Shown piece after piece: positions 29,561 to 63,400 of a stretch of DNA of 64,000 nucleotides (its first letter is position 1; each line of letters begins with the position of its first letter). The notes under the pieces were generated by a model. The model was not told the origin of the DNA and did no database searches. It saw only the letters and a program-made list of their open reading frames with translations. Position numbers and translations under genes: made by a program. Source of the stretch: Cenococcum geophilum 1.58 (lineage: Eukaryota; Ascomycota; Dothideomycetes; Gloniales; Gloniaceae). The stretch spans positions 124,001 through 188,000 of the forward strand of contig KV748176.1 in the NCBI GenBank assembly GCA_001692895.1. The letters run 5' to 3'.

Positions 29561-30456
29561 CATACGCAATTAAAGCTCTATATCTCTAATATAGCCTCTT
29601 AACTCTGCTATCTACGTTATCTATAAGTAGCTAGTTATATAATAGCTTTATAGTAGCGCAGTAGAAGGGTATTTAGATTTTTTGCGACCGTATACGTCCT
29701 ACCAAAGCTCTGCAAAAGCCCTACACGAAGCTCTACTCGAAGCTCTACTTGGAGCTCTACTCGAAGCTTTGCTCGAAGCTCTGCTTGAAGCCCTATATAG
29801 AGCTCTAAAGCTCTACTAATATGTAGCACTAATATACTACAAAGGTTCTACAATTGGCCGTATAAACGCCCATACGACTAGTTGCTATACGATCGTCTCT
29901 ACGAACGGCTCTATAAATGTCGCACGATTGCCCGTATAAACGCCTATACAATTTAATTGATTGATTAATTAATTACCTATACAAACGCCCGTACGAACGC
30001 CCATACAATCGATTAATTAAACGTCTATATAATTGCCTATATAATCGTCTATACGAACGTCTCTATAAACGCCTCTATAAATGTCTACACGAACGCCTGC
30101 ACGAACGCCTATACAAAGCTCTGCTCAAAGCTCTATACAAAGCCCTTTACAAGGCCTTCAAAAACAAGCCTAAATGCAAGGTCTATATAGAGAAGCTCTA
30201 TCAAATCTCTAACCAAGCTCTGCTCGAAGCTCTGCTCGAAGCTCTATCAAAACTCTGCTCGAGGCTCTATCGAAGCTCTGCTCAAAGCTCTGCACGAGGC
30301 TCTACTTAAAGCTCTATCAAAGCTCCACTTAAAGCTCCTCGAAGCTCTGCTCGAAGCTCTACCAAGGCTCTGCACGGAGCTCTTCTTAAGCTCTGCTCAA
30401 AAGCTCTACGCGAGGCACTGATCGAAGCTCTACACGACACTCCACTCCAATAACCC
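29560..30456. repeat. 12-bp array element, copy B
   Basis: Arrays of GAAGCTCTGC/GAACGCCTGTAC units surround a non-repetitive core (about 30140-30200: AAAAACAAGCCTAAATGCAA). The same core occurs inverted in copy D near 57.26 kb, between similar arrays, so this is an organised element and not simple satellite. A second shared word, CTCTACTAATATGTAGCACT, lies at about 29812. The right side is cut by the piggyBac insertion at TTAA 30457. Confidence 0.6.
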
Positions 30457-39399: not shown

Positions 39400-40083
39400 A
39401 CCGGGCGGGCACAGTCCTCAGAGAGGTGCAGCATTTAAAAGTAGAAGAGATGAGAAGTGAGATCGAGTTCGGAGGACAAGCTAAAGACTGTGCGCAACCC
39501 AAACAAGATCTGCATTCACTCACTAAGTGTTAGTAAGGATTCAAAGGGCTATATCGCAGATTATTCAAATAAGATGTAGCCTTACAACATTTATCTTTGG
39601 GTCATAGGCAACAGCTCGCATAAATTCCGGCACACGTAAAGTGCCTAGAACAAGGCGTATGATGTGGGATCGTATGAAACAGTGACTTTGCATAAGAGGT
39701 GCGTAGCACAAAACAACGCTGATAGATGGAAAGAATAGATGGAAAGACTACATAAGACAAGGCAATGATATCTTGACTAGACCATTTCCCACTAATCTGT
39801 GTCACAGAATTCCAGCCTCTTAGCCTCTGAGACATTGAAATGACAAGCCTCCCTGACGTAGATAAGCATGAAGGTAAATGTGGCCGTGCCACCTTTAGGT
39901 CGGCAACAAACCCTTATTGAGGTTAGAAGAGCATATTCCAGTTTCTGGTGAAGTAGAAGTGCCCAGGTGTGAGTCGTTGAAGAGAAAATGGCACTAATCA
40001 GATTCGCGTTAAGCCAAACTTCTCCGCAGAACTTCCGAGCCACAGCTTGAAAACTAAACCACCAACCCTCACAACTCTTCCCC
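39400..40083. other. Intergenic region upstream of JIP5
   Basis: Normal composition. Lies between the 5' end of the DUF6606 relic (minus) and JIP5 (plus). Open frames here on the minus strand are shadows running into antisense of JIP5. No promoter motif that I would defend. Confidence 0.5.
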
Positions 40084-41417
40084 ATGTTCGATACAATCTG
40101 TACTTTACCTCTCACTTCCGACCTCTTTACCCAAGCAATCCATCCTACTGAGCCTATCCTTTCTGTCGGGCTAGCGGGGGGCCACGTCCACACCTTTCTC
40201 CTTCCTCCGACTAGCGACGACAGTAGCGACGAACATGTGACAGTTTCGGAAAATGGCCATGGACAGATAGAAACGGCATGGAGAACACGAAGGCACAAAG
40301 GGAGTTGTAGGAGCTTGAGCTTTGGAATTGATGGCGGGCAATTGTATTCCGCAGGCACGGATGGGTTGGTGAAAGCCGCCGATACAGCAACTGGGCAGGT
40401 GTTTGCCAAAATCGCAGTGCCGCTCGACACGTATGCCTTCCCAACATATCCTAATTACCCGCAGCTTCTATCTCGTAGATTATTGCGGCTCTTAATTGGC
40501 TTCTCTAGCTAACTAGAACTAGTTCAAAGGGCACCCCCGATCCACCAGCTCTCCTCCATTGTCTCTCCCCACAAACTCTCCTCCTGGCAACCGATTCTTC
40601 TGCCCTTCATATCTACGACCTACGTACCGCAAATTCAATGCTTGCCCCTAAGCCCAGCCAAACACACCATCCGCATGACGACTATATTTCTTCGTTAACT
40701 CCTCTCCCACCATCCCCAACCAGTACAAGTGGATTCAGTAAGCAATGGATCAGCACAGGTGGGACAACCCTCGCTATCACCGATCTTCGCCGTGGCGTGT
40801 TGGTCAGAAGTGAAGACCAGGAAGAAGAGCTGCTCAGTAGCGTGTTCGTTGATGGTCTCCCGGCACGGGGTAGCAGCAAGGGCGAGAAAGTTCTTGTGGG
40901 TGGCGGTACAGGTGTTCTAACCCTGTGGGAGCGAGGCGTGTGGGATGATCAAGATGAACGTATTATTCTAGATCGAGGGGCAGGAGGTGGGGAGAGCTTG
41001 GATAGCCTGGCGTTATTGCCAGAGGGCCTGGGATTGGGAGGAAAGGTGGTTGCGGTAGGAATGGGAGATGGCGGACTAAACTTTGTGAAGTTGGGACCAA
41101 ATAAGGTTGTCGCGAAACTCAGACACGATGAGACGGAGGCAGTAGTTGCTTTGGGCTTTGATGTGACTGGGAGGATGATCAGTGGTGGAGGGCAAACCAT
41201 CAAGGTGTGGCATGAAAAGATTAATGAGGAGGATGGAGAGGATGTTGGAACGGGCAAGAGGGTGGTTGGGAGTAGTGATGAAGAAGATAGCGATGATGAA
41301 GACGAGGAGAGTAGCGAGGAGGAACAAAGCAGGAAGCGAAGGAAGAGAAGGAAGAGGAATAAGGGGAAGGACAAGAATGCTGGAAAGGGTGTTATGGCAT
41401 TCAAAGGGTTGGGTTAG
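40084..41417 (+). CDS. JIP5: JIP5/WDR55-like WD-repeat protein (ribosome biogenesis), one intron
   Basis: Two exons, 40084-40430 and 40523-41417, joined over a 92-nt intron (donor GTATGC, branch GCTAAC at 40509, acceptor AACTAG). They encode 413 aa, the usual size for fungal JIP5. Diagnostic stretches: [20 protein letters not shown] at the start, [10 protein letters not shown] and [10 protein letters not shown] in the first WD repeats, [14 protein letters not shown] just after the intron, [55 protein letters not shown] and [11 protein letters not shown] in the last repeat. The C-terminus is an acidic Asp/Glu/Ser run followed by a Lys/Arg-rich tail, the family's nucleolar-localisation-type end. 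In yeast JIP5 is a nucleolar factor linked to 60S subunit assembly. The acceptor at 40521-40522 was chosen over the two upstream AGs because only it restores the frame and the conserved [16 protein letters not shown] block. Confidence 0.92.
40431..40522 (+). other. JIP5 intron
   Basis: GTATGC donor, CTAAC branch site 9-13 nt before the acceptor AG. In-frame stops at 40510-40512 rule out read-through. Confidence 0.85.
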
Positions 41418-42440: not shown

Positions 42441-43858
42441 ATGGCTCCGAATTCGCTACCGCAATACAGATGCCAATACATTGAAGGGGTGGAAAAGGTA
42501 GAAGGCTACCGCATAGGCGGGTTTTGTCCGATCGCCATTGGCCAGATGCTAGATGATAAGTACGAGGTTATCGCTAAACTTGGTCACGGTGGATATTCTA
42601 CTGTTTGGTTGGCTAAAGACGTGTCTGTAACGTACGACTTTCCTGCTTCTGATGCTATGTTTGCTTGCTAACTTAATAATCGTCGACATGGTAGAACATA
42701 CAACAGCTGGGTGGCAGTGAAAATCCTGAAAAGCGAAAAAAGTAGTAAAACCAACTCTGAGCTGGCGATTCTTCAATCTGCTCGATATGCGACAATTGTT
42801 CAGTATCTGGGTAATTTCTGGACTCAATCTCCCAACGGATATCACCTTTGTCTCGTCATGGAAGTCACCGGGCCGTCAATTAGAGATTACGTTGAGTCAT
42901 TATGGTATGGAATGCTAGACTCAAATACTGCAATAGATCTAAGTAGACAGTGCGTAACAGCGCTGAAGACCCTACACGATAGCGGATTTGCTCATGGTGG
43001 TCAGTCACTTCAAGCCAACACTAACGGAACCCTAGACAATATGCTAATATCATTGTGCAATAACAGATGTCTGTTCAGCGAACTTCGTACTTGGTCTATC
43101 AGATATTTCTAGTTTCACAAAAGAGTCCATGCAACGTTTTCTTGGTGATCACCGGAGCGGATTAGTCTTGTCAAGAGATGGGTCTGCTTTACCAGCTGGA
43201 GTGCCAGAGCGTCTTTTCTTATCAGTTTCGTTTAAGGACCTGGTTGATCCATCAAAGGTTAAGATAATTGATCTTGGAGAAGGTTAGTCTAAAACTCCAT
43301 TCCGCCAAAAGCAACTATAGCGGGGGCTTAGAAACTGACATTAAAACGGCAACAGCTTTCTCTGGATGCAAGAAGGGCGTAGCGAATCACGTAACTTCTA
43401 GAGCTCCAGAGCTATTGGCAGAACAGGCTGCTACTATGCAATCAGATATCTGGAGTATAGGCTGTCTAGTAAGATCCCTTAGCACTTTATTACTTCTCAT
43501 ACCCTAGTCCTAACTCGTTAATAGATGTTCGAGCTTGTAACTACACATCCGCCATTCTCAATTCCCGTGGGCAAAAAGCAATCATCATTTTTCGGTACAG
43601 CGAATGATTATCCCACCAGTTAGTTCCATATGCTAATTTCCATTCTCTCCAGCCAAAACCCCCGACGAACAGTATGAATATCTATGGGAGTTTCTTTCAC
43701 GACATTCCGTTCTTGACTACGAGGAAGAAAATGACTACTTAGCAGGACTACTCTGTCATATGCTCGTCCAGGACCAGCAGGGACGAGTAAGTCTTGGGCG
43801 CGTGTTGGAGCACAACTTCTTTAAGTTTGCAGATATACCTCCTGAGTTATTAGGGTGA
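42441..43858 (+). CDS. SRPK-like serine/threonine protein kinase, six exons
   Basis: The proposed exons 42441-42622, 42695-42999, 43067-43282, 43356-43468, 43525-43618 and 43653-43858 total 1116 nt (371 aa) with all phases consistent. The N-terminus has the SRPK signature: EGYRIGGFCPIAIGQMLDDK then the glycine loop LGHGGYSTVW (residues 47-56), followed by the lysine motif VAVKIL, a catalytic loop HGDV...AN (HGD instead of HRD), DLGE in place of DFG, SRAPELL and DIWSIGCL. It lacks the long spacer insert of metazoan SRPKs and is short, like the expanded small SRPK-like kinases of Pezizomycotina. The first donor could be 42623 (GTCTGT) or 42632 (GTACGA). Introns 2-4 are well formed. The fifth is only 34 nt yet has donor, branch site and acceptor. 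Substrate unknown; SR-protein phosphorylation is the family role. Confidence 0.85.
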
Positions 43859-45950: not shown

Positions 45951-48094
45951 ATGGCACCTAAAGGTATGTGCACAAGGTAGCTCTATAGGAAGCGCTAACC
46001 AACCCTCATCTAGACCGAGAAGAGCGCCGCCGAATGCGCCAGCGTGGAGCTGGGTATGCCATCTAAGGATCACTTTAAGCGGCTTCTTATTGACTATATA
46101 ATAGTACCCAACAGCTGCAGAACGTTAACTTTGGTTTTAAATTTGGCGCACCTTCGCTGCCTGCACAGCGCTCATCGCGTCGGACTCCACAACCTCTACC
46201 TCCACGCCCCTCCTCTAGTCAAACACCTAAAACCATTCCACCACGACCGTCATTGCACAGAACGCCAGTTGAGGCGAGCATACAAAAGCGAGGTGAATCT
46301 CCCCGACAAAGCCGGAGCGCTTCGGTTCCGATTCACAGCAGCGCGCAAACGGGGAAATTGAAGTCGATCAAAAACCCCAAACCGAAAAGCCCATTGTTGT
46401 TTGTTACGCCCACTGTAACTGGTAAAAGGAAAAGAGGCAAGCAAGAAGCAAAAGCTGCGCAGGATTTAGAACAGGACGAATTGGAGCAAGACGATGAACA
46501 CAGAACATCTGCCCAGAAGAGTGGGGCTACGAGAGCAAGATCTACCACAACCCCAAAATCAATGACCGATCGCGATGATGTACCGGATGAGCTTGAGGAG
46601 AATGATGAGAATCATTTTGTGTCAAGTGATCAGAAACGGCGGGAGAGATTGTCAAAATCATTAGAAGCTACGCCAGCAACTCCGAACATCAATGAGCATG
46701 AAGATCCCCTTCAGAGCCATCGACTACGCCAAGCGCTAGCCGCCATTGAAGATAATACCCCTGCTCCCTTGCAAAAACGAAGTAGGCAACAGGGAGAATT
46801 AGCCAGAATCGGAAACTCAAATCGCACTACCCGGTCACAAACAAAACAGCTGATACCCAATAGGGGCGGCGCTCGTCATTCAGCGCTATTGAAACCTGAT
46901 CCACAAGCTACCGCGCAAGAGGATAACGAAAGTGGTGATGAGCTGTCTCCAGACAAAAGTCAACATACACCGGGGAAGCAGAGAGGAAGAAAGTCCGCCG
47001 AGCCTGTAGTGGGGGAGTTAGAGACTGGAAATGTCGCAAAAGGGGATGGAGCGGAGGATTTTGACGAATTATCGCCGGAAAATGATAGAATACGACGGAG
47101 AAACGATAGACATCAAACCCTCTCTGGACCGTCACTACGAGCGCCAGCGCCACTGCTGAAGCCTGGTTCGGACGGAGACAACGAGCTTCATGCTTCCGAA
47201 GATGAAGATGTTAACTATCATCGTAGACGTCCAATGAAAGTGGTGGCGACTGAAACACTCCAGGAACGTGGAGAGCTCCACCAATCTGCTACCGTCACTG
47301 AAAATGCACATACTCGACGACCAAAACGTCCGAAGCCATCGACTAGCTCCAAGCCCAAGAAAAAACGCCAGAGAGGCGGTGACGCTGCTATCCCAATAAC
47401 AATCTACCGTCTATTTCACCCCAAGCCCCGCTCTCACACTGATATCGAAGGCGGTGAAGACAGTGCATATGTTGCTGCAGCAGCTATAAACTCCTCGATC
47501 CGTCTTCCGGGCGTCAATGCGGTTGATGTCCTTGCCCAGATCACAGAAGAGATACTGTCCCACCGGATTACAGAATTCCATGAACAATCTCAAGTCGCCG
47601 TCAGTCAAACCGTGCGTTCTGAACTTAAGCGTAAACGAGGCGTGGTACAGCTGTTTAACGCCTCACTCTCAGATCGACTATTTGAACTTACAGAAGCGGT
47701 AGATGCGGGTACAGCGCTAAAGGGGCGGTTGAAAGGGGTCCTAAGGGAGAAGCTAAGGCTTAGAGAAGAGTTCCTATCGATTAGGAAGCAGAGAGAAGAT
47801 TTAGCCTTAAAAATGGACGAAATCAGGACTGAACATAGGGAGCGGGTGAGATCCAAGAAAGAACGAGATGATATCAATGCAGCGATGTTCGATATCGAGG
47901 CCGCGGTGCTGAGAGGTAAGGAAAATGCTGAGAAAGAAGGAAGAGAGAATGAAGGTCCCAAGATGCCGTTGGAGATGCTACTCGAAAACCGGGCAAGGGA
48001 CGTGGGATCAGATGGTGGCGGTCTATTAGAGAAAGTAAAAGAGTTCAATGGTGCTCTGGAGAGTGCTGCGGCGGTTTTTGAAAGCAGGGCCTGA
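45951..48094 (+). CDS. CENP-Q/Fta7-like inner-kinetochore protein, three exons
   Basis: Proposed exons 45951-45963, 46014-46053 and 46105-48094 (2043 nt, 680 aa). Intron 1 (50 nt) has GTATGT, GCGCTAACC and TAG; intron 2 (51 nt) has GTATGC and TAG. The long last exon is certain; the two short 5' exons are inferred from splice signals and frame. The N-terminal two thirds are low-complexity, Pro/Arg/Ser- and acid-rich with basic patches. The C-terminal region, roughly residues 440-650, has the CENP-Q pattern: AIPITIYRLF, then LPGVNAVDVLAQITEEIL, RSELKRKRGVVQLFNASLSD, RLFELTEAVD and a long coiled coil ending INAAMFDIEAAVLRG. CENP-Q (Okp1/Fta7 in yeasts) is a COMA/CCAN subunit linking centromeric chromatin to the outer kinetochore. 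Confidence 0.82.
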
Positions 48095-48621: not shown

Positions 48622-48965
48622 TAGGCAGGCCTGGGTTTAAACTTCCTTGGCAAAATTTTAAGGCTATATATCGCTCCCTAATACGCAGGCTAGCTGGCCA
48701 AATAAAGTAGAATATATAAGTAGAAAAGATTAAGATTTAAATGTATTAACAACCGCGATTATAGCTACTGGGTTAGTCCCGTTATAGCTGTTTAAAAATA
48801 ACCTATAGTTAAAAAACCGCCCGGTTTATAGCAAACGTGCGCCTATAATCTCTTAAGACGCTTTGTAGAGGATTGTTAGGGCACGTGGAGCTGAGGATTA
48901 GTAAGAAGTTATGCAAAGGGGTGGGCCTATTATCGGCTGAGGCACCTAAGATAAGGCAATCGGCG
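48622..48965 (-). repeat. Repeat R, reverse-orientation diverged copy
   Basis: Read on the minus strand from 48965: TTATCTTAGGTGCCTCAGCC, then AGAGATTATAGGCGCACGTT, TATAAACCGGGCG, GCGTATTAGGGAGCGA and CAGGCCTGCCTAACTAGC. The order and spacing match the plus-strand copies at 52217 and 55684. It is more diverged and internally altered. It lies directly upstream of the MazG-like gene. Confidence 0.65.
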
Positions 48966-49223
48966 TTATTTCTGTTGATTTACGTAAGAGCATTGAACTT
49001 CGACCCAAGAATTGCTTTTTAGAACATTCTCGCAATCTGGCTCTGAGTTGCAACCTCCACCGTTATGATTTCCCAGATACTAGTTCTACTCCTCCAAAGA
49101 GTGCTGTCATACTATCGACTCTAGGTATTTCCCCCCCTGATATTACCATAAACTAGTCGACTTAGAGCAGAGCTCTCATCGGCAAGTTATAATCTGCGAA
49201 GATGGCGTTTCAACAACTTACCT
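48966..49223. other. Upstream region of the bacterial-type cassette, with an overlapping upstream ORF
   Basis: Unique DNA of ordinary composition, presumably the promoter and leader. An ATG at 49202 opens a 24-codon frame ending at 49276 that overlaps the MazG-like start at 49224. No bacterial promoter or strong Shine-Dalgarno sequence is evident. Confidence 0.45.
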
Positions 49224-49604
49224 ATGATGATACAGGCTTGGACGACACTCGTCTCTACTGTGAACCCAATGGTTAGCAAGGCAGTCCACGACACCCTCGC
49301 GGCATTCGTCGCTGAACGCGATTGGGCGCAGTTCCACACTCCGGAGAACCTCGCCAAGAGCGTTGCGATCGAAGCCGGCGAACTACTCGAGTGCTTCCAG
49401 TGGGGCGGCGAAGCTGACCCGAAGCGCGTACGCGAAGAACTTGCAGACGTACTGACCTACTGTCTACTTCTCGCTAATCGCATCGGAGCCGATCCTGAGC
49501 AGATTGTGCTGGAGAAGCTCGAAATCACGCGCAAGAAGTATCCCGTGGACAAGGCCCGAGGAAGCAGCAGAAAGTATGATGAACTCCAACATGGCGCGGC
49601 TTGA
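49224..49604 (+). CDS. MazG-like nucleotide pyrophosphohydrolase (bacterial type)
   Basis: Intact, intron-free frame of 126 aa. It fits the small MazG-like/dCTP-pyrophosphatase-type family, which hydrolyses (d)NTPs to NMP and pyrophosphate with Mg2+. The metal-binding EXXE...EXXD signature is visible: E50-AG-E53 and E72-LA-D75, separated by an FQWGGE helix turn. The C-terminus carries the family tail RKKYPVDKARGSSRKYDEL. Residues 1-15 look unlike the family, and the ancestral start may be M16 (49269, MVSKAVHDTLAAF); that is within the uORF-overlap zone. GC content and codon choice are higher in G/C than most neighbours. Its last 14-29 bases overlap the next frame, as in a bacterial operon. 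Actinobacterial relatives are what I would expect as best matches; this is recall, not a search. Confidence 0.9.
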   Translation: MMIQAWTTLVSTVNPMVSKAVHDTLAAFVAERDWAQFHTPENLAKSVAIEAGELLECFQWGGEADPKRVREELADVLTYCLLLANRIGADPEQIVLEKLEITRKKYPVDKARGSSRKYDELQHGAA

Positions 49605-51345
49605 ATTCTCCAAAGCTGCCGTTACAACGTGGGAGCTCCACGACGAGAAACATGGCAACTGGCCTGTCGTGTATGTATTGGACGATGGCCGTGACACCGC
49701 ACAGGCCAATCCGAACAGACTAAGGGACATCTACGTTGGGGAATCGCTCAATGCCGCAGGCCGACTGCGTCAGCATCTCGAAACACCCGCGAAACAGCAC
49801 CTCAAGAATATTCGCGTTATCATCGATGAAAGGTTCAACAAGTCGGTCTGCCTTGACTTGGAGTCCTACCTCATCAGAATGTTGGCCGGCGACGGTGCCA
49901 ATCGGGTGCTCAACCGAAACAACGGGATCACGGAGTCCAAATACTACCAACGCGAGATGTATCGCGAGGGCTTCCGCAATATCTTCGAACGACTCAAGGC
50001 TGATGGCATCTTCACGCGAAGTATCCCCGAAATCGAAAACAGCGTCCTCTTCAAGTTGTCACCATTCAAGGCGTTGACGGAAGATCAAGCAACTTCGGTA
50101 GAGGAAATCGTCAAGGGGTTCCTCATTGACGTCGAGAGAGACGCCAAAAGCATGATTGTGATCCAGGGCGATCCGGGCACTGGCAAGACGGTCGTGGCCA
50201 TATATATGATCAAATTGCTCGTCGACATCAAGACATTCACTTCACTTGAAGATCTGGACAGCGACTCGCGATTCTCTAACTTCTTCACCGAAACCAATCA
50301 GAGGCTACTCCAGGGTCTCCGCATCGGCCTGGTTGTGCCGCAGCAATCGTTGCGAGACTCCATCAAGAAGGTCTTCCGGAAGACGCCTGGGCTTAACCCC
50401 TCAATGGTCATGACACCCTTCGACGTGGGACAATTCGATGGAATTTTCGATCTGCTATTGGTTGACGAGACTCATCGGCTTAATCAACGTGCTAACCAAC
50501 CATCGGGAGTGCTCAACGCCAAGTTCGCAACCATCACAAGAGAGCTTTTTGGCAGCGACGATACCAGCAAGACTCAACTTGATTGGATACGGGCGAAGAG
50601 CCGACACCAGATCTTCCTTTTAGACGCAGCGCAGAGTGTTCGACCAGCCGATCTACCCTCGGAGCTGCTGTTGGACCTCGTTGCTGATACTCGTGCGTCG
50701 GAGCGGCATTTTCAGCTTCGGACTCAGATGCGCGTACAAGCGGGATCGGACTTCGTGTCTTACGTTCGCTGGATTCTCGATTCTCGCCCTCTCTCATTTC
50801 CACGAGTGAGACGAGATTTCGGGGAATATGATTTCCGCGCGTTCGACAGTGTTGCACACATGCGAGATGAAATTTTCCGACGCAACGCCGAAGTGGGCCT
50901 TTCACGCATGGTCGCTGGGTATGCATGGGAGTGGAAGACCAAAAGGGACAAGAACGCGTTCGACATCGAAATCGGCCTGACGCGGCTCTGCTGGAACAGC
51001 ACCCCGACCGACTGGATTGCTTCAAGCAACGCGCTCGAGGAAGTGGGATCGATTCATACGGTTCAGGGATACGACCTAAACTACGTTGGCGTCATCATTG
51101 GTCCTGATCTGCGATTCGACCCAGAACGAAGGCGTCTTTTCATTGATCGCGACTCGTATTTTGACAAGAAGGGCAAGGAGAACAACCCGGCTCTCGGCAG
51201 GACCTACTCGGACGATGACCTGCTGCGATTCATCACGCAGATCTATGCCGTGCTCATGACGCGTGGGATCCGGGGAACGTACGTTTATGCGTGCGATCCC
51301 GGTTTGAGGGAGTATCTCAAAGCTTTCATCCCATCCCGCTCCTGA
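49576..51345 (+). CDS. GIY-YIG nuclease fused to DUF2075 (Schlafen-group-3-like) ATPase/helicase, bacterial type
   Basis: The frame is open from 49504; likely starts are ATGs at 49576 or 49591 (the latter gives MARLEFSKAAVTTWEL, the family N-terminus, in a good Kozak context). About 585-590 aa, intact, no introns. Numbered from 49504: a GIY-YIG-like domain at 52-140 (VVYVLD, then DIYVGES, R87, E120 in CLDLESYLI); the conserved linker RSIPEIENS...LSPFKALTEDQ; Walker A GDPGTGKT at 222-229; VVPQQSLR; Walker B LLLVDETHR at 317-325; FLLDAAQSVRP; LRTQMRV; EVGSIHTVQGYDLNYVGVII at 513-532; and MTRGIRGTYVYACDP near the end. These are superfamily-1-type helicase motifs as found in DUF2075. It resembles full-length actinobacterial proteins end to end. 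Role unproven; nucleic-acid cleavage coupled to ATP-driven translocation fits the domains. Confidence 0.9.
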   Translation: MMNSNMARLEFSKAAVTTWELHDEKHGNWPVVYVLDDGRDTAQANPNRLRDIYVGESLNAAGRLRQHLETPAKQHLKNIRVIIDERFNKSVCLDLESYLIRMLAGDGANRVLNRNNGITESKYYQREMYREGFRNIFERLKADGIFTRSIPEIENSVLFKLSPFKALTEDQATSVEEIVKGFLIDVERDAKSMIVIQGDPGTGKTVVAIYMIKLLVDIKTFTSLEDLDSDSRFSNFFTETNQRLLQGLRIGLVVPQQSLRDSIKKVFRKTPGLNPSMVMTPFDVGQFDGIFDLLLVDETHRLNQRANQPSGVLNAKFATITRELFGSDDTSKTQLDWIRAKSRHQIFLLDAAQSVRPADLPSELLLDLVADTRASERHFQLRTQMRVQAGSDFVSYVRWILDSRPLSFPRVRRDFGEYDFRAFDSVAHMRDEIFRRNAEVGLSRMVAGYAWEWKTKRDKNAFDIEIGLTRLCWNSTPTDWIASSNALEEVGSIHTVQGYDLNYVGVIIGPDLRFDPERRRLFIDRDSYFDKKGKENNPALGRTYSDDDLLRFITQIYAVLMTRGIRGTYVYACDPGLREYLKAFIPSRS

Positions 51346-51584
51346 AATCGTGCGGTAAACTAGTTAGAATTAATACGAAGCAGATAACTTGCTCTGCATA
51401 CTTAGAGGCAGGAGGGAAGAGCTAAATTAAGAAGCTTTTGAGTAGGAAGCCTCTTTGCAAGCTTTTAGTGAATACAATAAAGAGATCGCGCGATAGTAAG
51501 GAGTTTGGGAGACCTTAAAGGTCGCCAAGAACAACGTACGGTTGTAGACTCTGTTGAATACCACTATCCCTTGACTGATAACTG
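51346..51584. other. 3' flank of the cassette
   Basis: Unique, moderately AT-rich DNA between the stop codon and a MITE. No gene recognised. Confidence 0.4.
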
Positions 51585-51927: not shown

Positions 51928-52216
51928 GTAAGTGACAATGTAAGGGATAAAACACGCCTATTTTCTCTTAGACCCTTAGAGAGAAATTTGCCTCACATAT
52001 GTCCTAGATTATATTACTTACCCCTAGTGCTATCTAATTGGCTAGATTGTTCGCGCACGGGGCCTTCCTTGGCAGAATTTTATGGCATTATTGCATAAAA
52101 TGCATAACAAGGTGCAGAGGTCGATTCCTCAACGAGGGTTAGGGCACCTGAGATAAGCCAAAGCCCGTCGAAGACTGCGTGTGCACGTGCCCACGCATCT
52201 ACCGACAGGACCCTTA
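51928..52216. other. Intergenic DNA with an inverted repeat facing repeat R
   Basis: GGCACCTGAGATAAG at 52143-52157 is inverted relative to the CTTATCTCAGGTGCC edge of repeat R at 52217, giving a potential hairpin with a loop of about 60 bases. Otherwise no gene. Confidence 0.45.
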
Positions 52217-53310
52217 ACTTATCTCAGGTGCCTCAGCCGCTTCTCCAAGGAATTTGTGGCGTTGTATGGCCCCACTCTCCCGCCACAGCCCCACTCTGCC
52301 AACTCGTGCAAACTCCTGAGCCAATTAGCGGCGCGCACTAACTCCTGCGAACTCCTAAGCCAATAGAACGTCGCGCTACTCCCTAGCCCCCCTATAACCC
52401 TAAAATTCCTCTATAAAGCGTCTAAGAGATTATAGGCGCGCATTTACTATAAACCAGGCGCGATTTTTAACGTATATTAACTTTAAGTAACTATAACGGG
52501 GTTAATATAGCGGCTACAGCTACGGTGTGAGGTGATAAGCTCCGCACCACTCAGCCACACAAACCCGCAAAAGGTAAACGAGTGACTGGCTTGATGCCAG
52601 ACACGGCTGTGCGGAACAATACATATAGGCGAGGTGACTTCGTCACCTGATAATGCATCCCTCCCAATGGCGACTGTCCACAGGCGCAATTCCCTGTCCC
52701 GTGGTGAGGCTTAGGAGCGCGGCTTAGTGCCGAGCTACGGTTAATGCCGGCTCGCGGATCGTGCGATCGTTGTGCCCAATATATTAGACCCCCAGCAGCT
52801 ACAGCACGGCGCCCGAAGAGGCCGCCTCGCGCTTCGGTCGTAGACCGGCATAGGCTGTCCCTGAGTTAGCCTGGGGTTCGAATGAGGTTTGAACCCACGA
52901 GGCCCCGGGTATTAAGCCAGTCACTATGTGAGGTGATAAGCTCCGCACCACTCAGCCACACAAACCCGCAAAAGGTAAACGAGTGACTGGCTTGATGCCA
53001 GATATGGCTGTGCGGAACAATATATATAGGCGAGGTGACTTCGTCACCTGACATACGGTTCCCGATATAATTAAATTATAACATCCTCTATTAGTATATT
53101 CTAGCAAATTTAACTAGCTAATTAACGTATTAGGGGGTAAAGTACAGCCTTAAAGTTTAAAGACGCGTTTTTAAACCTAGTTACGCCTAACTAGCCTTAT
53201 TAATACAGCGACCGTACTCCACTACTACAACTCTATTTACTACTAAACTTTATAAAATACCTCTTATACCTTATTATAAACAGCTCGCCTAATTATACTA
53301 CACTTATATA
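52217..53310 (+). repeat. Repeat R, plus copy 1, interrupted by a SINE insertion
   Basis: Begins CTTATCTCAGGTGCCTCAGC and matches 55684-56247 over about 565 bp once the insertion 52527-53053 is discounted. Shared words include GGAATTTGTGGCGTTG, CCAATAGAACGTCGCGC and GTAACTATAACGGGGTTAAT. It is AT-decayed toward the right. Confidence 0.75.
52527..53053 (-). mobile_element. tRNA-like SINE, tandem pair, with TACGGT target duplication
   Basis: Two near-identical 124-bp units (52527-52650 and 52928-53051) enclose 277 bp of GC-rich DNA. TACGGT flanks the whole (52521-52526, 53054-53059). On the minus strand the right unit has an A-box-like TGGCTGAGTGG (52958-52948), followed about 60 bp on by a B-box-like GGTTCAAACC (52895-52886). 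That spacing suits a type II (Ser/Leu-like) tRNA head. Each unit starts with the palindromic AGGTGACGAAGTCACCT. Open frames of about 60 codons here come from the repeat and are not genes. Confidence 0.65.
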
Positions 53311-55683: not shown

Positions 55684-56247
55684 GACTACTTATAAATTAT
55701 CTCAGGTGCCTCAGCCGCTTCTCCGAGGAATTTGTGGCGTTGCATGGCCCCACTCTCCCGCCACAGCCCCACCCTGCCAACTCGTGCGAACTTCTGAGCC
55801 AATTAGCGGCGCGCACTAACTCCTACGAACTCCTGAGCCAATAGAACGTCGCGCTACCCCCTAGCCCCCCTGCAACCCCAAAATTCCTCTACGAAGCGTC
55901 TGAGAGATTATGGGCGTACGTTTGCTATAAACCGGGCGCGATTTTTAACGTATACTAACTTTAAGTAACTATAACGGGGTTAATATAGCAGCTATAGCTA
56001 CAGTTCCTAATGCAATTAAATTATAATATCCTCTATTAGTATATCCTAGTAAATTTAACTAGCTAATTAACGTATTAGGGGGCGAAGTACAGCCTTAAAG
56101 TTTAAAGACGCGTTTTTGAACCCGGTTATACCCAACTAGCCTCGTCGATATAGCGACCGTACTCTACCACCACACCTCTATTCACCCTAAAACTTCCTAA
56201 GGTACCTCTTATACCCTATTACAAACAGCTCACCTAATTATACTATA
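55684..56247 (+). repeat. Repeat R, plus copy 2 (uninterrupted)
   Basis: Reference copy for repeat R: TTATCTCAGGTGCCTCAGCC at its start, about 564 bp, less decayed than copy 1. It ends at the edge of the 12-bp array element near 56250. Together with copy 1 it brackets the RecQ relic as direct repeats. The ends lack TG...CA, so an LTR pair is not supported. Confidence 0.7.
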
Positions 56248-56249
56248 CC

Positions 56250-57450
56250 TATACTAGTAGGTATGGATTTGCTTCGCAGTAGGGGGGAAGCTTTAGGTAG
56301 AGGCTCGTGCAGAGCTTCGTGTAGAGCTTCGTGTAGAGCTTCGTGTAGAGCTTCGTGTAGAGTTTCGTGCAGAGCTTTGTACAGAGCTTCATGCAGAGCT
56401 TCGTGTAGAGCTTCGTGCAGAGCTTCGTGCAGAGCTTCGTGCAGAGCTTCGTGCAGAGCTTCGTGCAGAGCTTCGTGCAGAGCTTCGTGTAGAGCTTCGT
56501 GTAGAGCTTCGTATAGAGCTTCGTGCAGAGCCTTGTGCAGAGCTATGTGTAGGCGTACAGACGTGTAGATTGCAGACGTGCGGACGTGCAGACATTCGTA
56601 CGGGCGTTCGTATGGGTGACTAATTAATTGATTAATTGTATGGACGTTTATAAAGCCGTTCGTATGGGCGTTTGGTTGGTTAATTGTATAGACGTTTATA
56701 GAGCCGTTCGTGTAGACGATTATAGAGACTTCCTAGTATATTAGTGCTGCGTATTAGGAGAGTTTTGGAGCTCCGTATTAAGCTTCGAGTAGAGCTTCCA
56801 GCAGAGCTTTGAGTAGAGCTTTAAGCAGATCCTTGAGTAGAGCTTTTGAGCAGAGCTTTTGAGCAGAGCTTTTGAGCAGAGCCCGTGCAGAGCCTTAAGA
56901 ATAGAGCTTTGAGCAGAGCGTCGTGCAGAGCTTCGAGCAGAGCGTCGTGCAGAGCTTCGAGCAGAGCGTCGTGCAGAGCTTCGAGCAGAGCGTCGTGCAG
57001 AGCTTCGAGCAGAGCTTCGAGCAGAGCTTCGATAGAGCTTTAAGTGGAGCGTCGTGCAGAGCTTCGAGCAGAGCGTCGTGCAGAGCTTCGAGCAGAGCGT
57101 CGTGCAGAGCTTCGAGCAGAGCTTCGAGCAGAGCTTCGATAGAGCTTTAAGTGGAGCGTCGTGCAGAGCTTCGAGTAGAGCTTTAAGCAGAGCTTCGAAC
57201 AGAGCTTCGAGCGGAGCAAAGCTTTCAGTAGAGAGCTTCCCTATATAGACCTTGTATTTAGGCTTGTTTTTAAAGGCCTTGTAAACGGCTTTGTATAGAG
57301 CTTTGAGCAGAGCTTTATATAGGCGTTCGTGCAGGCGTTCGTGCAGGCGTTCGTGCAGGCGTTCGTGCAGGTTTGTAGGGACGTTTGTAGGGACGTTTGT
57401 AGGAACGTTTGTAGGGGTATTAGGGGCCGGCTGGGCTCCATTGCGAATGC
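56250..57450. repeat. 12-bp 'AGAGCTTCGTGC' array element, copy D (largest and best preserved)
   Basis: Starts with the conserved edge ATTTGCTTCGCAGTAGGGGG and AAGCTTTAGG (as in copy C), then about 20 units of AGAGCTTCGTGC (56310-56545), a spacer with GACGTTTATAGAGCCGTTCG words, a second array (56770-57230) with higher-order AGAGCGTCGTGC alternation, the core AGGCTTGTTTTTAAAGGCCT (57259, inverse of copy B), and GCGTTCGTGCAG and GTTTGTAGGGACG units to 57420. Both strands stay open over long distances because the unit length is a multiple of three. Confidence 0.75.
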
Positions 57451-57779: not shown

Positions 57780-59515
57780 CAACTGAGATAACTTATAAAA
57801 GCAATCTAGCGTAGAAGAGACGGGCAAAAGCTACTTAGGGCGAGGCCTTAGTAGTACGCAAGTTGCTAAAGCAGCCGTCTATACCGGCGGAGTATACTAC
57901 GCACGTTTGGCGACGGGATAATAGCCTTACTATTTAGGTTGCTATATAGGAGGTAGTATAGAGCGTAGTAGATATACTAGCTTCGCTACTTAGAAGTTAG
58001 GTTACTAGTAGGATTAGCGCGCCAAGCTCTCTATTTAGTACTCCACTTCTAGCTATACTAAAGGGTATTAAACGCGCGGTATAGGTACTTAAGGATATTT
58101 AGAGACTAATCTCTACGCCTATAACGCATAGTATGTCCGCTATAGGCTTTTAGAATATCGCTGCTCCTAATACTTAGGATGCCGCAGTTCTTAACTCCTA
58201 GGATACAGCCGGTCTTAATTCTTAAGTCGTCGCTGTTCTTAACTCTTAAGTTATAGCTATTCTTAATTCTTAGCCTACCGTTTCAGTTGCATCTTAGTTA
58301 TAGGTCTTAACGCCTAGCTAGAAAAGACAAGCTAGTAACTAAAGGGACTTACCTATTAAATATTAAACAGTTATATAGGAGAGGGATATAAATGTAGATA
58401 TAGTACTTATATTTACTCCAAAAACTAGATCTAGGCGTGTTAGAAAAGCAATACTAAGGGGTAAAGAGAATTTCCTTACAGAATTATAGATAGAGGTAGC
58501 TTAGGGTTTTATATAATGGCAGTTTTAAACAATAGCTTAGAAGTTAGTGGAAGTCCTAGTAATATATTATAAAGGCAATATTTTTACCTTAGCGTATTCT
58601 AATTAGTCTAGGAGTTAGCAGGAGTTAATAGGGGTTAGTAGGAGTTAGTAGGAGTTAGTAGGAGTTTATATAGCGGATTTTATATAGAATCTTACCTATA
58701 AACCTATAACCTCTACTTAAAATATTATAACGTGCTCTAATTGGCCTAAGAGTTTATAGGAGTCTTCTAATTAGTTTAGGAGTTTATAAAAGTCTTTAAA
58801 AGTTTTATGCTAATGACTTAATTAATAAGGTAAATAAGTATTAGATTACGGTAAGTATTTATAAAGGTAAAGTAGATAAGCTAGTACTTATAGTTATCTA
58901 TGCCCCTAAGTTCTCTTTATAACAACACCAATTTTTTTTAAAAATTGTTTATAATAACTCCTTTTATAGCTTAGGTGCTTTCGCACCTAATAAACTTTCT
59001 AATTAGTAAAGAGACCATTCTCGCCGCCGCCTCCACGCTCTATCGCGGAGCCCTATATTTAGGTCGCGTCCGGCGTCCTCTATAAGTATTTTCCTATACT
59101 AAGTGGTTAATTAAAGCTTTAGTAAATTAACCTAAGCTTCTAACTACTTCCCTACTTAGAGAGGCCGTTTACTAACCAATTCTATAGCCCCCCTCGCCCT
59201 TACCGCGCTCGCGCTCCCCCTATCCCCGTCCCTATCCCCGTCCCCGTCCCCGTCCCCGTCCCCGTCCCTACCCCTATCCTTACCCTTACCCCCTATTCCT
59301 CTCCTATAATACCTCTTAGCGGCAATAATAATAATAATAATAACAACGGTTTTAGCTGGTAGCTTAATCTACTATACGTTTTGCAATGCCTTATATCTTA
59401 AACGTTAGCTAATATAGTATATAGATTACTATTACCATTACTACTACCTCCTCCTCTACTACTACCACTACCACCGCCACTGCCGCTCGCGGCCCCGCCG
59501 CTACCCCTTGCTTAG
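57780..59515. other. RIP-decayed DNA with short tandem repeats, no gene
   Basis: 58140-58290 has about 30-bp units reading as an AVLNSQ-type peptide in a decayed frame. 58611-58670 has six units of GGAGTTAGTA. 59216-59275 is a CCCCGT hexanucleotide tract and 59322-59342 an AAT tract; 59440-59490 is an ACT/ACC triplet tract. Protein-like plus-strand sense at 57.8-58.4 kb belongs to an unidentified decayed element. Confidence 0.45.
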
Positions 59516-59837
59516 TGTAACGGAACCTTATAGCAAGAACTACGATAGGCTCGTTAATGGGCTAGGTGTGTAGGAAATGCAAGTATAAAAGTCAACAACG
59601 TAATAATAACTGGTGGAGTGGTTGCCTAACAGATTAACTCTAATTGTATTCTAAGAATTACTACAAGGAAGGAACTATCTAGGTAGGGACTAAGGGTCCT
59701 TAAATACACAACCGTACTCCTAAGAAAGTCGTTACTCTATTTACTCTATCTGCTTTACTCGCTCTATTGCAGATCTTATAGATTATACAGATTACACAGA
59801 TTATATTACGTGACTCTACTTACTATTCCTTATTATA
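59516..59837 (-). repeat. LTR of family-B Gypsy, copy in the outer element
   Basis: Starts TGTAACGGAACC; about 322 bp. The same order of words as 20690-21013 and 60466-60787 (GGTGGAGTGGTTGCCTAA, GGAAGGAACTATCTAGGTAG). Confidence 0.75.
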
Positions 59838-60465
59838 TGGTTCCACTAGTTCTATCCTAGACCTTACCTATATTAACTAACTAGCTTCCTCTAACTCCTC
59901 TTTTAGTAGTCGTAACATTGTACTTAAAGCGTCCGTAATACTATCTCCCTCCTCTTTATCTTTATCCTTAAAGATACCTAGCATCTCTAGGTCGTTTACT
60001 AGAGGTATAATATCCGTTTAATTAATTTGGTTAACATTATTACTTATAATACCTAAAGCATCCTTTCTTTCTTCCACAGCTCGCCAGTCTTGTACCGTTG
60101 CTACAATATTATCTCTTAGTAAAATAATACCATCTCCGTATTCTCGTTGTTTAAAAGAGGGGTTAATTTATATTATATTGGCGAACCTATCTTTACAATA
60201 ACCGTCCTCTTGCTTAAAGTACACCAAAGCGAATATTTATTTATCCTATAACGTTCGCTCTACTTCTAATACTAAATATACGCGACCTATTACTCTTAAT
60301 AGTCGTCTGGTTCCCTAATTAATTTATCTTAGGGTCTCGTATTTAATCTACTACTACGCGGCTAGATAGTAAACTATTATAAGCCCTTACTAAGTTAGAA
60401 CGTTCCCGTAACGTAGAACAAAAGGCTTTAAATACTTAAATCGCGGCATCTACTTATCTACTTTG
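59838..60465 (-). mobile_element. 3' interior of an outer family-B Gypsy copy, cut by a nested copy
   Basis: Closely parallels 60788-61420 and stops exactly where the second LTR begins. A family-B element is therefore inserted in another member of its own family. Decayed. Confidence 0.65.
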
Positions 60466-63400
60466 TGTAACGGAACTTTGTAGCAGGAACTATAATAGGC
60501 TCGTTAATAGGCTAGGTGTGTAGGAAATACAAGTACAAAAGTTAACAACGTAATAATAACTAGTGGAGTGGTTGCCTAATAGATTAACTCTAATTATATT
60601 CTAAGAATTACTATAAGGAAGGAACTATTTAAGTAGGGATTAAGGGTCCTTAAATACACAACCGTACTCCTATAAAATCCTTCTTATACGTAATATACGT
60701 CTTATATATAAGGTACGTAAGTTCCTCTTATTCCTCTCGTTTAATATATAGCATATTATATAACCTTAGTTACTATTTCTCGTTACATAGTTCTATCGGC
60801 TCTATTCTAGACCGTGCCTAAATTAACTAACTAGCTTCTTCCGTCTCTTCTCTAAGTAGTTATAATATTGTACTTAAAGCATCCGTAATACTATCTCCCT
60901 CCTCTTTATCTTCGTCCTTAAAGATTTAAAACATCTCTAAGTTATTTACTAGAGGTATAATATCCATCTAATTAATTTAGTTAATATTATTGCTTATTAT
61001 ACCTAAAGCAATTTCTTCTTTATACGCCCAACGTCGTGCTCGCACTATTACTGCAATATTATCTCTTAGTAAGATTATACCGTCTCCNTATTCTCGTTGT
61101 TTAAAAGAGGGGTTAGTCTATATTACGTTAGCGAACCCATCTTCGCAACAACCGTCCTTTTACTTAGAGTGCACTAAAGTAAATATTTATTCGTCCTATA
61201 ACATTCGCTCTACTTCTAATACTAAATATACGTAACCTATTACTCTTAATAGTCGTCTAGTTCCCTAATTAATTTGTCTTAAGGTTTTATATTTAATCTA
61301 CTACTATGCGGCTAGATAATAAACTGTTATAAGCCCTTACTAAGTTAAAACGTTCCCGTAACGCAAAACAGAAGACTCTAAATATTTAAATTATGGCGTC
61401 TACTTATCTACTTCGTCTTAAGAAGGTTTATAAAAAGGTTTATTCTAAGAAGTGGAAACTTATAAAATAAGGTCTACAGAAACTAGGTGATAAAAAAACG
61501 GATTCTCCTCTAATAGAGAAGGAAACAGATCTAAGTAGTTTAGCAACTACTCTTTTTAGGTCCCCCTTAGGTAACTCATTCTTTAGCGATCCTTTTTTAT
61601 TAATACTGCCTAACCTAATCTCTTCTAATACTCCTATACCTTTCCTATAGCATTTTTTAAATTCTCTAATAGCTCCTAAGTAGTCTTAGTATAGCCTATC
61701 CACTTTACTTCGTACTATATTTCGTCGTTAATGTCCTTATAATTAACAATCTTCAAAACTTACTATTTATCTTCTTCTTATCCTTTATACGTATCTACTT
61801 TATAAACTAATAGCTTAACATTCCTATATACTGGCTCTAGCATTACGATATACTATATAGGGTAGATCTTCATTTTAGCTAATAGGTTTAACTTAAATGT
61901 AACTAGTAAAATTCTCTATATAATTTTAAAAGGTCCTAGTTTAACATAGTCTAACTTCTTACTTAGTTGTTAACTCTTAAAATTTTTATATAGTAGCTAT
62001 ACTTTATCTCCCTCCTTAAGATCTGGTCCCTTAAATCTCTTAGCATTATAGTACTTTTTTATTCTCTTTTATACTTTCTTTACTAATTCCATAAGGTCTA
62101 TATAAAGATTTATTAACGTTTTTATTCTTTCTTTAGCTATACTACTCGTTTTCTTTACTTACTATAGTAATAACAATATTCTTAGCTTATATCCGTAATT
62201 TGCCTTAAATAGTAATATGCCTATTCCTTCTTAAGGTGTTGCATTATATATAAACTATATAACTAGTAATAGCAATACCTAATTATTCTGTATATAGTTA
62301 ACATAATGCCTTAGATACTGCTTTAGCGTCTAATTTAACCTTTCTATTTAACCGTCTATCTGCAGATAATATACGGTAAAAGTTACTACTTAAACTCCTT
62401 GCTCCGCTAAAAATACTTCCTAAAATGCTACTATAAATCTTAGATCTCTATCTAATATAATNTTACTTAGTNCTCNATGNCTTANAAANACTTCTTTAAC
62501 NTANATTCTAGNNATATCTTCCNCTAAGATTTCTTCTATATATGCTATAAAGTATCCCCACTTTATAAGCTTATCTACTATTACTAAAATNANNTTATAA
62601 TNTTATCCGGTAATANNNTCTNTTAANTTTNGCAACTTAATAATAAAGTCCTATAATATAACCTCCTATAGTCTCTCTAGTATTTTAATAGGTTATAGCC
62701 CTCTATATAGCTTATACCTTATTAGTTTATTCCTTTAATAATCTAGATATTCCTTTATAACCTTTCTAGCTATCCTTTAGATTCTATTAATAATATATTC
62801 CTTCTAGAGTCTTAACACTAAGCCCTTAGCTTTATTGTGTCCTTAAGTTGGTCTCTTATAGAAGTCTTCTATAAACTGCTCTACTATACTTCTTAGGATA
62901 TACTTTACTTCTTAATTTTCGTATATATCCGTCTATAGATCTTCTAGCTATATTTTTAGAATTCTTTATACCTAAAAGCTTTCTAGTGTCTTATAGACTT
63001 TCTCTAGTTTATTATCTTTTTAAGTTACTATAATTTTCGGATAATTATACCTAATTAATCCGTCTATATCTTTTCATAATAAAGCCCCTAATAGCTTCTC
63101 CTTATTTTATAGTTTAGCTTTATAGCTTAGAGCATCTACCTATATATTATCTATACCTTTAGTATACTAAATCTTAAAATAGTATTCTATAAGCATCTCT
63201 ACCCATCTAACCTATCTTTAGTTAAGTTCCTTTATTATTAAAAATCCTATTAGGTTCTTATAATCCGTCTTAACTATAAATAGTTTCTCTATACCTTATA
63301 AGAATACTCTCTATTTTTTTAATACTATAACTATACCTAATAACTCCTTATTATAGATGTTATAGTTTAACTCTAATGGTATTATCTTCCAACTATAGTA

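What the first reader, a model, noticed from the sequence alone, without database searches (positions are those of the whole stretch)
49224..51345. Bacterial two-gene cassette (MazG-like + GIY-YIG/DUF2075 helicase) inside a fungal chromosome
Seen: two intact, intron-free frames with complete catalytic signatures (EXXE/EXXD; GIY-YIG-like Y/Y/R/E; Walker A GDPGTGKT; Walker B LLLVDE) in a GC-richer style, a few kb from spliced fungal genes. Known: MazG enzymes hydrolyse nucleotides, GIY-YIG domains cut nucleic acid, and DUF2075 is the Schlafen-group-3-like helicase fold. Similar pairs are, to my recollection, common in actinobacteria. Inference: horizontal acquisition as a unit, perhaps of a nucleotide-depletion plus nuclease/helicase defence or genome-maintenance module now available to a fungus. 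The frames have stayed open beside heavily mutated repeats, which suggests selection or recency.
Basis: partly seen in the sequence, partly recalled or inferred. Interest (0 to 1): 0.92.

Follow-up and report, generated by a model that had tools for sequence, protein, structure and literature searches.

The report
Bacterial gene pair in fungal DNA
A 2.1-kb bacterial gene pair, one gene for a nucleotide-cleaving enzyme and one for a nuclease-helicase, sits intact between native repeats and genes of what looks like a filamentous fungus, and was most likely acquired whole from a relative of bacteria of the family Microbacteriaceae; whether the fungus uses it is not yet known.

Summary
Window 49224-51345 carries two intact overlapping frames: a MazG-like protein (A), closest in the PDB to dCTP pyrophosphatase 1, and a 589-aa protein (B, start 49576) with a GIY-YIG domain fused to an SLFN-g3 (DUF2075) SF1 helicase. 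Both match one operon of Microbacteriaceae (A up to 77%, B up to 70% identity), and B branches inside that family in a rooted tree. Gene order and overlapping start survive. The flanks are eukaryotic: a CENP-U-like gene 1.1 kb away, an intron-containing kinase, and RIP-type repeats of one family on both sides. Acquisition of the operon as a unit from an unsampled Microbacteriaceae relative is the best reading (about 0.85). Catalytic residues are kept, but codon usage is still nearly bacterial, so recency and selection cannot be told apart. In bacteria the pair is patchy (105 of 398 Microbacteriaceae genomes) and sometimes lies beside known defence genes, so a defence role there is plausible, not shown. 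Expression, fungal relatives and long-read support could not be tested; an assembly artefact is unlikely but open (about 0.1).

The parts
49224..49604 (+). Gene A: MazG-like (DCTPP1-like) nucleoside triphosphate pyrophosphohydrolase, 126 aa from the first in-frame ATG; the start homologous to the bacterial start is ATG 49269 (111 aa)
   Evidence: PF12643 E 3.4e-20; human dCTP pyrophosphatase 1 E 4e-21; alignment A2
49576..51345 (+). Gene B: GIY-YIG domain (about residues 29-113, by the invariant residues) fused to SLFN-g3 / DUF2075 SF1 helicase (residues 191-574), 589 aa
   Evidence: PF09848 E 1e-63; 70% identity to L001; AlphaFold2 mean pLDDT 89 and Foldseek matches to Dna2, Upf1, SLFN14, RecD
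49576..49604 (+). 29-nt overlap of A and B; in most relatives 14 nt. The usual A stop after KYDxL is absent in the window and A runs on by 5 codons
49253..49271 (+). CTCTACTGTGAACCCAATG: possible remnant of the leaderless bacterial promoter (12 of 22 relatives have CTGCTAGGTT there, 8 a close variant, 2 neither); left edge of recognisable bacterial DNA
   Evidence: compared by eye; could be chance
49202..49276 (+). 24-codon upstream ORF with a good eukaryotic start context (AAGATGG) that overlaps A's starts; it would bear on how A and B are translated in a fungus
   Evidence: role inferred
48653..48955 (-). Left flank: inverted, degraded pieces of a native dispersed repeat (long arms 72-73% alike, short pieces 88-95%)
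52215..52516 (+). Right flanking copy of the same repeat family (another copy at 55693-55992, 92% identical)
46094..48094 (+). Eukaryotic neighbour: CENP-U-like frame, ends 1.1 kb before the cassette
   Evidence: PF20994 E 1.8e-20 on 46253-48091
42441..43109 (+). Eukaryotic neighbour: protein kinase with a 63-nt intron (42632-42694, CTAAC branch-like site); only the first two exons were read
   Evidence: PF00069 E 2.6e-8 on the second exon; spliced reading open across the junction
40051..41414 (+). Eukaryotic neighbour: WDR55-like WD40 protein in two adjoining frames
   Evidence: PF24796 E 2.8e-9 and 6.7e-13, below the family's cut-off

Best explanation
A complete two-gene operon, little more than its promoter edge, gene A and gene B, moved from an unsampled relative of Microbacteriaceae into the genome of a RIP-competent filamentous fungus and has stayed intact. 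(Shown: families, operon order, overlap, tree position, eukaryotic flanks, catalytic residues kept.) Likely working, inferred: A is a dCTP-type nucleoside triphosphate pyrophosphatase that cleaves dCTP or modified dCTP to the monophosphate; B is an ATP-driven SF1 helicase that moves along nucleic acid and cuts it with its GIY-YIG domain. In the bacterium the two probably act together against incoming DNA or on damaged DNA. In the fungus, if transcribed, A would be read from its ATGs and B from 49576 by leaky scanning or re-initiation, since no other ATG lies between 49271 and 49576. I put about 0.85 on the transfer itself, at any age, and 0.8 on the whole account of origin given here; activity in the fungus is not shown and gets about 0.4.
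For: Matches over nearly all of B to Microbacteriaceae, best 70%. Tree rooted on 12 distant rows: B inside a 27-row clade (25 Microbacteriaceae, 1 Arthrobacter, the window) with SH-aLRT 98; the same group 100/99 in a 48-row tree. A beside B in 99 of 102 loci with full-length B (89 A then B, 8 B then A, 2 on opposite strands; some loci are duplicates), none within 400 nt in 3. 14-nt overlap in 47 of 55 loci with A next to B, recognisable in the window. Composition changes at the operon's edges: GC 0.44 in 49100-49249, 0.56-0.62 inside, 0.38-0.42 in 51350-51499, though 0.38-0.52 further on. One native repeat family on both sides. RIP composite index +0.91 to +1.37 in six large repeat-rich blocks and +0.76 in the nearest right-hand repeat block, -0.4 in the gene block, -0.71 in the cassette. 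No decay: 2 of 126 invariant and 8 of 211 near-invariant positions changed in B against 35 actinobacterial rows (12 distant rows left out), 0 of 36 and 1 of 46 in A; 8 of 36 and 10 of 25 rows do worse or come earlier in the ranking.
Against: The own genome is not held, so coverage, copy number and long reads cannot be checked. Codon usage is the most fungus-like of 27 rows, but only just (-0.086 against -0.110 for L013), and CpG and TpA values are bacterial: little amelioration. No full-length relative above 70% in B was found (one 140-residue fragment at 71%), so the donor is unsampled. The ratio of change at codon positions 1+2 to position 3 on the window branch, 0.158, is inside the range of 33 tips (0.065-0.492) but above their median of 0.108. 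The tree program flags the window's end branch as long and its exact place as unsure. No evidence of expression.
Confidence: 0.8

Rival explanations
1. Silent passenger: the operon was inserted recently, is not expressed, and is intact only because too few mutations have happened. (This shares the transfer with the best explanation and differs on function.)
For: GC3 of B 0.647 against 0.656-0.911 in 26 clade relatives and 0.43-0.49 in three neighbouring fungal frames: hardly moved towards the host. CpG o/e 1.24 and TpA/ApT 0.38 are bacterial. It lies at the edge of repeat-rich DNA. In a simulation on the L001 gene, 20 neutral substitutions leave B stop-free in 49% of trials.
Against: The end branch is the longest of the 27-row clade (0.54) with a low rate at codon positions 1+2, and A's usual stop has changed. 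But all this could have happened in the donor, and A's end also varies among bacteria (11 of the 67 listed A proteins end otherwise, some of them distant).
Confidence: 0.4
2. Assembly chimera or contamination: a bacterial fragment was joined into a fungal contig.
For: Nearly bacterial codon usage; no read data; the genome is not held.
Against: Fungal sequence, with pieces of one repeat family, lies on both sides, so two misjoins are needed, and judged from 50-nt GC windows both would have to fall close to the operon's promoter edge and stop codon. The window B protein matches no searched bacterium above 70% over its length.
Confidence: 0.1
3. Old fungal gene family: the pair entered fungi long ago and is inherited vertically in many fungi.
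For: No fungal collection could be searched, so it is not excluded.
Against: B branches inside one bacterial family with an end branch of 0.54 against 0.43 for the bacterium L013, little for a very old transfer; codons hardly ameliorated; both frames run without introns.
Confidence: 0.1

Closest known systems
Operon MazG-like + GIY-YIG/SLFN-g3 helicase of Microbacteriaceae (e.g. L001 Microbacteriaceae MAG, Rhodoglobus, Cryobacterium, Mycetocola)
   Same: Same two proteins, same order and strand, overlapping start; by tblastn up to 77% (A) and 70% (B) identity; catalytic residues kept
   Different: The window copy lies in fungal DNA; overlap 29 nt instead of 14; A has 5 extra C-terminal codons and up to 15 extra N-terminal ones
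dCTP pyrophosphatase 1 (DCTPP1 / RS21-C6), all-alpha NTP-PPase
   Same: Sequence match E 4e-21 over residues 25-124; metal-binding EXXE and EXXD, and the aromatic residues aligned with human W47, W73, Y102 (their roles recalled), are present
   Different: Bacterial lineage, operon partner of a helicase; substrate untested
Schlafen group 3 helicases / Dna2 / Upf1 (SF1 helicases)
   Same: PF09848 helicase domain; Foldseek E 6e-10 Dna2, 2e-9 Upf1, 4e-8 SLFN14
   Different: N-terminal GIY-YIG domain and no Schlafen core; query TM-scores only 0.28-0.36 and rmsd 11-22 A for the first eleven matches, so the overall arrangement differs
Nhi, AbiO and candidate-defence models PDC-S41 and PDC-S14 of PADLOC
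   Same: Weak partial matches: PDC-S41 2.9e-7, AbiO 9.5e-7, Nhi 6.6e-6, PDC-S14 1.4e-5
   Different: Nhi and AbiO cover about 50 residues around Walker A, PDC-S41 the last third, PDC-S14 the GIY-YIG part; not members
Bacterial operons acquired by yeasts (thiamine salvage; enterobactin)
   Same: Whole bacterial operon moved into a fungus
   Different: Those are metabolic and in Wickerhamiella/Starmerella yeasts; here a nuclease-helicase module in what looks like a RIP fungus

Membership tests
MazG-like PF12643 / DCTPP1-type all-alpha NTP-PPase | Score above Pfam's curated cut-off | tested here: met
   72.5 bits against 27
MazG-like PF12643 / DCTPP1-type all-alpha NTP-PPase | EXXE ... EXXD metal-binding residues | tested here: met
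   E50, E53, E72, D75 invariant in 25 rows and aligned with human DCTPP1
MazG-like PF12643 / DCTPP1-type all-alpha NTP-PPase | Hydrolysis of dCTP to dCMP and PPi | not testable with these tools
   needs an enzyme assay
SLFN-g3_helicase PF09848 (DUF2075) | Score above cut-off over the whole domain | tested here: met
   216.3 bits against 24, profile 1-354 of 354
SLFN-g3_helicase PF09848 (DUF2075) | Walker A and B intact | tested here: met
   G198, G201-T205, D297-E298 invariant in 48 rows
GIY-YIG nuclease | Pfam PF01541 above cut-off | tested here: inconclusive
   window protein 18.0 bits against 22.6; 36 of 48 members match at E <= 0.01
GIY-YIG nuclease | Catalytic Y, Y, R, E, N | tested here: met
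   Y33, Y53, R63, E96, N113 invariant in 48 rows; assignment to motif positions recalled
Schlafen protein | N-terminal Schlafen core (AlbA_2) domain | tested here: not met
   not among the 8 families listed for the window protein at E <= 0.01
Bacterium-to-fungus transfer | Nested within a bacterial clade in a rooted tree | tested here: met
   27-row Microbacteriaceae clade, SH-aLRT 98; no fungal homologue could be included
Bacterium-to-fungus transfer | Native eukaryotic sequence on both sides | tested here: met
   CENP-U-like frame and intron-containing kinase on the left, repeats of one family on both sides; no eukaryotic gene was identified on the right
Bacterium-to-fungus transfer | Physical linkage in single reads, presence in other isolates | not testable with these tools
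   genome and reads not held
Anti-phage defence system | Protects a bacterium against phages | not testable with these tools
   only patchy distribution and some hand-picked defence-gene neighbours
Nhi / AbiO | Full-length profile match | tested here: not met
   best stretches residues 191-238 and 191-240 of the 613-aa frame only

The most novel reading that the evidence does not exclude
A bacterial defence operon, dNTP pyrophosphatase plus nuclease-helicase, has been taken up whole and put to work by a filamentous fungus, both proteins being made from one two-frame messenger by leaky scanning, to act on foreign or damaged nucleic acid (mycoviruses, transposons, plasmids) or on methylated cytosine nucleotides in a fungus that mutates its repeats by RIP.
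Probability: 0.15. Interest if true: 0.88.

Novelty: new variant of a known kind. Interest (0 to 1): 0.6.

Why it matters
Transfers of whole bacterial operons into fungi are reported, in the passages read here, for two metabolic cases in yeasts. A nuclease-helicase operon with a defence-like distribution in a RIP fungus would show that fungi can sample bacterial conflict systems as ready-made units, as reported for single antiviral genes in other eukaryotes (abstract). It also points to a bacterial two-gene system, patchy in Microbacteriaceae, on which my searches found no paper, and which can be tested directly in laboratory bacteria.

Tried and rejected
Own-genome search: none held. Viral contigs: no relative in two scans. 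Phage records: 4 of 50,697 match B, the best an unverified faecal contig with 51% identity and A beside B. Plasmids: 40 of 72,556 records, all under 60%; the top row 32.6% over 94% of B, and 10 rows not listed. PHROGs: only a pyrophosphatase family for A (5.5e-9) and a weak PhoH-like match for B. Rfam: no match in the window at the gathering score. tRNA scan: one entry without a named tRNA at 52873-52966, partly inside a repeat, taken as spurious. PDB by sequence: nothing significant for B (best E 0.58).

Age of transfer by codon usage: not decisive. Selection by codon-position rates: the window branch lies in the bacterial range, above the median, but it includes donor evolution, so it says nothing certain about the time in the fungus (33 of 48 rows used). 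Absence of ATG codons between A's and B's starts: none in the window, but 2 of 38 relatives also have none and 24% of 5000 synonymous shuffles do, so it is not evidence of selection. An intron fusing A and B: considered by eye only, none found. TTG 49504 as B's start: rejected, since that stretch is A's coding DNA read in another frame. My first choice of ATG 49591 was corrected to 49576. The inverted repeats as ends of a transposon carrying the cassette: not supported, since the left copy is degraded, the copies belong to a larger repeat cluster, and no matching ends were seen. The tree of A alone has too few columns to place it. VIA-align was not available. Literature on the gene pair or on DUF2075 in fungi: nothing relevant listed; one search gave one related paper, read as an abstract.

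Rows left out: the tree uses the 47 of 72 loci that have the 14-nt overlap, plus the window; one search adds 12 distant rows. Alignment A2 uses 24 of the 38 A proteins extracted. Neighbours of the bacterial operon were chosen by eye as defence-like before the Pfam and PADLOC scans (10 proteins each, 12 different ones, of 402 neighbour ORFs), so their defence content is not a measured enrichment; 3 of the 10 given to PADLOC had no match.
Full report
OBSERVATION. Frame A runs 49224-49604 and frame B is open 49456-51345, both on the + strand. A is Pfam MazG-like (3.4e-20) and B is SLFN-g3_helicase, PF09848 (1e-63), with a weak N-terminal GIY-YIG match. B's start was placed by comparison: in the bacterial loci looked at, B begins at an ATG inside the last codons of A (AAGTATGAC and the like, in KYDxL-stop), and the same ATG in the window is 49576. 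From there MMNSNMARLEF lines up with bacterial starts such as MTPFDISRLDF. B is then 589 aa, against 590 in L001.

WHERE IT COMES FROM. A scan of the 84,980-species collection for six short peptides of B gave 72 loci that encode relatives; the best eleven are Microbacteriaceae at 64-69% identity. A search of 398 whole Microbacteriaceae genomes found B in 105 at E <= 1e-60, the best full-length match at 70%, with one 140-residue fragment at 71%. An order-wide draw gave 21 of 396 and a phylum-wide draw 1 of 396 at the much stricter E <= 1e-200, none above the same 70%. Within Cryobacterium 13 of 57 genomes have it at E <= 1e-60, so it is patchy. In a 60-row tree rooted on 12 distant rows (Saccharibacteria, Dojkabacteria, Lachnospiraceae and others) the window protein lies within a 27-row clade (25 Microbacteriaceae, 1 Arthrobacter, the window) with SH-aLRT 98; within it the window groups with Lacisediminihabitans, Herbiconiux and Plantibacter at only 84. 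The program warns of long branches and unlike letter make-up among the outgroup rows. A 48-row tree with bootstraps gives the same 27 rows 100/99 and flags the window's end branch, 0.54, as long. The tree of A alone is unresolved; its nearest row by path is L001, and its highest identity 79% over 106 columns, to L087.

OPERON. Of the 105 loci held, 102 have a full-length B; 89 have A directly before B, 8 have B before A, 2 have A adjacent on the other strand and 3 have no A within 400 nt (some loci are duplicates of one genome). In 47 of 55 loci B's start codon lies 13 nt before the last base of A's stop. In the window the stop after KYDEL is absent and A runs on for QHGAA to the next stop, which makes the overlap 29 nt. 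All 24 relatives in alignment A2, chosen from 38, end at KYDxL or KYDSI; over a wider set 11 of 67 listed A proteins end otherwise, some of them distant, so the shift is no proof of a change after transfer. Upstream, 12 of 22 relatives have CTGCTAGGTT a few bases before A's ATG, 8 a close variant and 2 neither, a pattern like the -10 box of a leaderless promoter (recalled); the window has CTCTACTGTGAACCCAATG. This may be a remnant or chance. GC is 0.44 in the 150 nt left of 49250 and 0.38-0.42 in the 150 nt right of 51350 (0.38-0.52 further on), against 0.50-0.62 in the 50-nt windows sampled inside, so the recognisable bacterial DNA is almost exactly the operon.

THE HOST. The genome is not held and no fungal collection is available, so the species is unknown. 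The neighbours on the left are eukaryotic: a CENP-U-like frame ending at 48094 (PF20994, 1.8e-20), a protein kinase whose reading frame is restored by removing a 63-nt intron at 42632-42694, and a WDR55-like frame (below the family's cut-off). No gene was identified on the right. Six large repeat-rich blocks have a RIP composite index of +0.91 to +1.37, the block 52200-53300 +0.76, the gene block -0.4 and the cassette -0.71; the DNA just beside the cassette is intermediate (+0.24 left, 0.0 right). RIP is known from filamentous ascomycetes (established knowledge), so the host is most likely one of these. Pieces of one repeat family lie on both sides of the cassette, inverted: 48653-48955 on the left, 52215-52516 and 55693-55992 on the right. 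A chimera would need two misjoins, both close to the operon's edges.

IS IT ALIVE? Positions invariant in the other 35 actinobacterial B proteins are kept in 124 of 126 cases and near-invariant ones in 203 of 211; 8 of 36 rows do worse (the 12 distant rows were left out). For A the figures are 36 of 36 and 45 of 46, eleventh of 25 in the ranking by changed positions. The window's ratio of change at codon positions 1+2 to position 3 is 0.158, eighth highest of 33 tips, range 0.065-0.492, median 0.108. So there is no clear sign of decay. But the time spent in the fungus is not known: codon usage is the nearest to the fungal neighbours of 27 rows, yet only marginally nearer than L013, and CpG and TpA values are bacterial. 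Between the window and L001 there are 125, 100 and 328 differences at the three codon positions of 583 codons; 200 random changes to the L001 gene leave it free of stops in 0.15% of 2000 trials, 20 in 49%. Selection would follow only if many of those changes happened after the transfer, which cannot be shown here.

HOW IT PROBABLY WORKS. A: the best solved relative by sequence is human dCTP pyrophosphatase 1 (4e-21), aligned through the metal-binding residues (window E50, E53, E72, D75) and the residues aligned with human W47, W73 and Y102, whose role in base recognition is recalled. I therefore expect cleavage of dCTP or modified dCTP. B: the AlphaFold2 model (mean pLDDT 89.2, pTM 0.89) is closest in Foldseek to Dna2, Upf1, Deep-Sea Helicase 9, SLFN14 and RecBCD's chain D (E 6e-10 to 5e-8 for the first eleven; query TM-scores 0.28-0.36), that is, SF1 helicases, one of them (Dna2) with its own nuclease. 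The GIY-YIG residues and both Walker motifs are invariant in 48 proteins. A nucleotide-cleaving enzyme beside a nuclease-helicase, patchily distributed, in changing gene surroundings, sometimes next to known defence genes (HmaB 2.3 kb from B in L018, a Hachiman HamB-like helicase by L028, a type IV restriction enzyme by L071, Vsr and a cytosine methylase by L019, chosen by eye) reads like a defence or DNA-maintenance operon. This is inference. In a fungus two overlapping frames need leaky scanning or re-initiation: there is no ATG between 49271 and 49576, and B's ATG has A at -3. Of A's ATGs, 49224 and 49269 have C at -3, but 49227 has A, and an upstream ORF at 49202 with a good context overlaps A's starts. 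B could thus be translated; the lack of ATGs is not statistically notable.

KNOWN OR NEW. Bacterial operons in fungi are known from Wickerhamiella/Starmerella yeasts, for thiamine salvage and enterobactin (passages of PMC13376923; Kominek et al. 2019 seen only in its reference list). Repeated uptake of single bacterial antiviral genes by eukaryotes is reported (abstract of PMC10732462). I found no paper on this gene pair or on DUF2075 proteins in fungi in the open-licence library; most subscription journals and bioRxiv are not in it. I rate it a new variant of a known kind, of interest 0.6, held down by the missing proof of integration, expression and function.

Mended: the plasmid identities, the 71% fragment, the start context of ATG 49227, the wider variation of A's end, the promoter counts, the median of the rate ratio, the rows left out, and further PADLOC matches of B.

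Noticed in passing
window 7652-8020, 29716-29795, 30192-30432, 56305-56544, 56781-57371: Long 12-nt tandem arrays (consensus like AGCTTCGTGCAG) that stay open in several frames; parts recur in inverted orientation across the window.
   Followed up: no
window 17869-20070 and 24952-27104: A broken inverted repeat of about 2.2 kb, pieces 78-89% complementary, in RIP-like AT-rich DNA.
   Followed up: no
window 31759-32067 (-): Fragment of a transposase, Pfam DDE_Tnp_1_7 (E 3.2e-7).
   Followed up: no
window 2726-2956 (-): Fragment of a reverse transcriptase (PF00078, E 6e-4, below the cut-off).
   Followed up: no
window 59511-61338: Several repeats spaced exactly 950 nt apart (three families 82-91% identical), with further copies of two of the families near 20.7-21.1 kb.
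   Followed up: no
L048, L049, L050, L053, L054, L055, L056, L069 (Butyrivibrio and one other Lachnospiraceae): The same two genes occur in the opposite order, B before A, and in L051 and L052 on opposite strands, so the association is wider than the operon order.
   Followed up: partly
L073 (MT836409.1, unverified phage clone) 6646-8689: A (64%) and B (51%) side by side in a contig from human faeces deposited as phage; it may be bacterial.
   Followed up: partly
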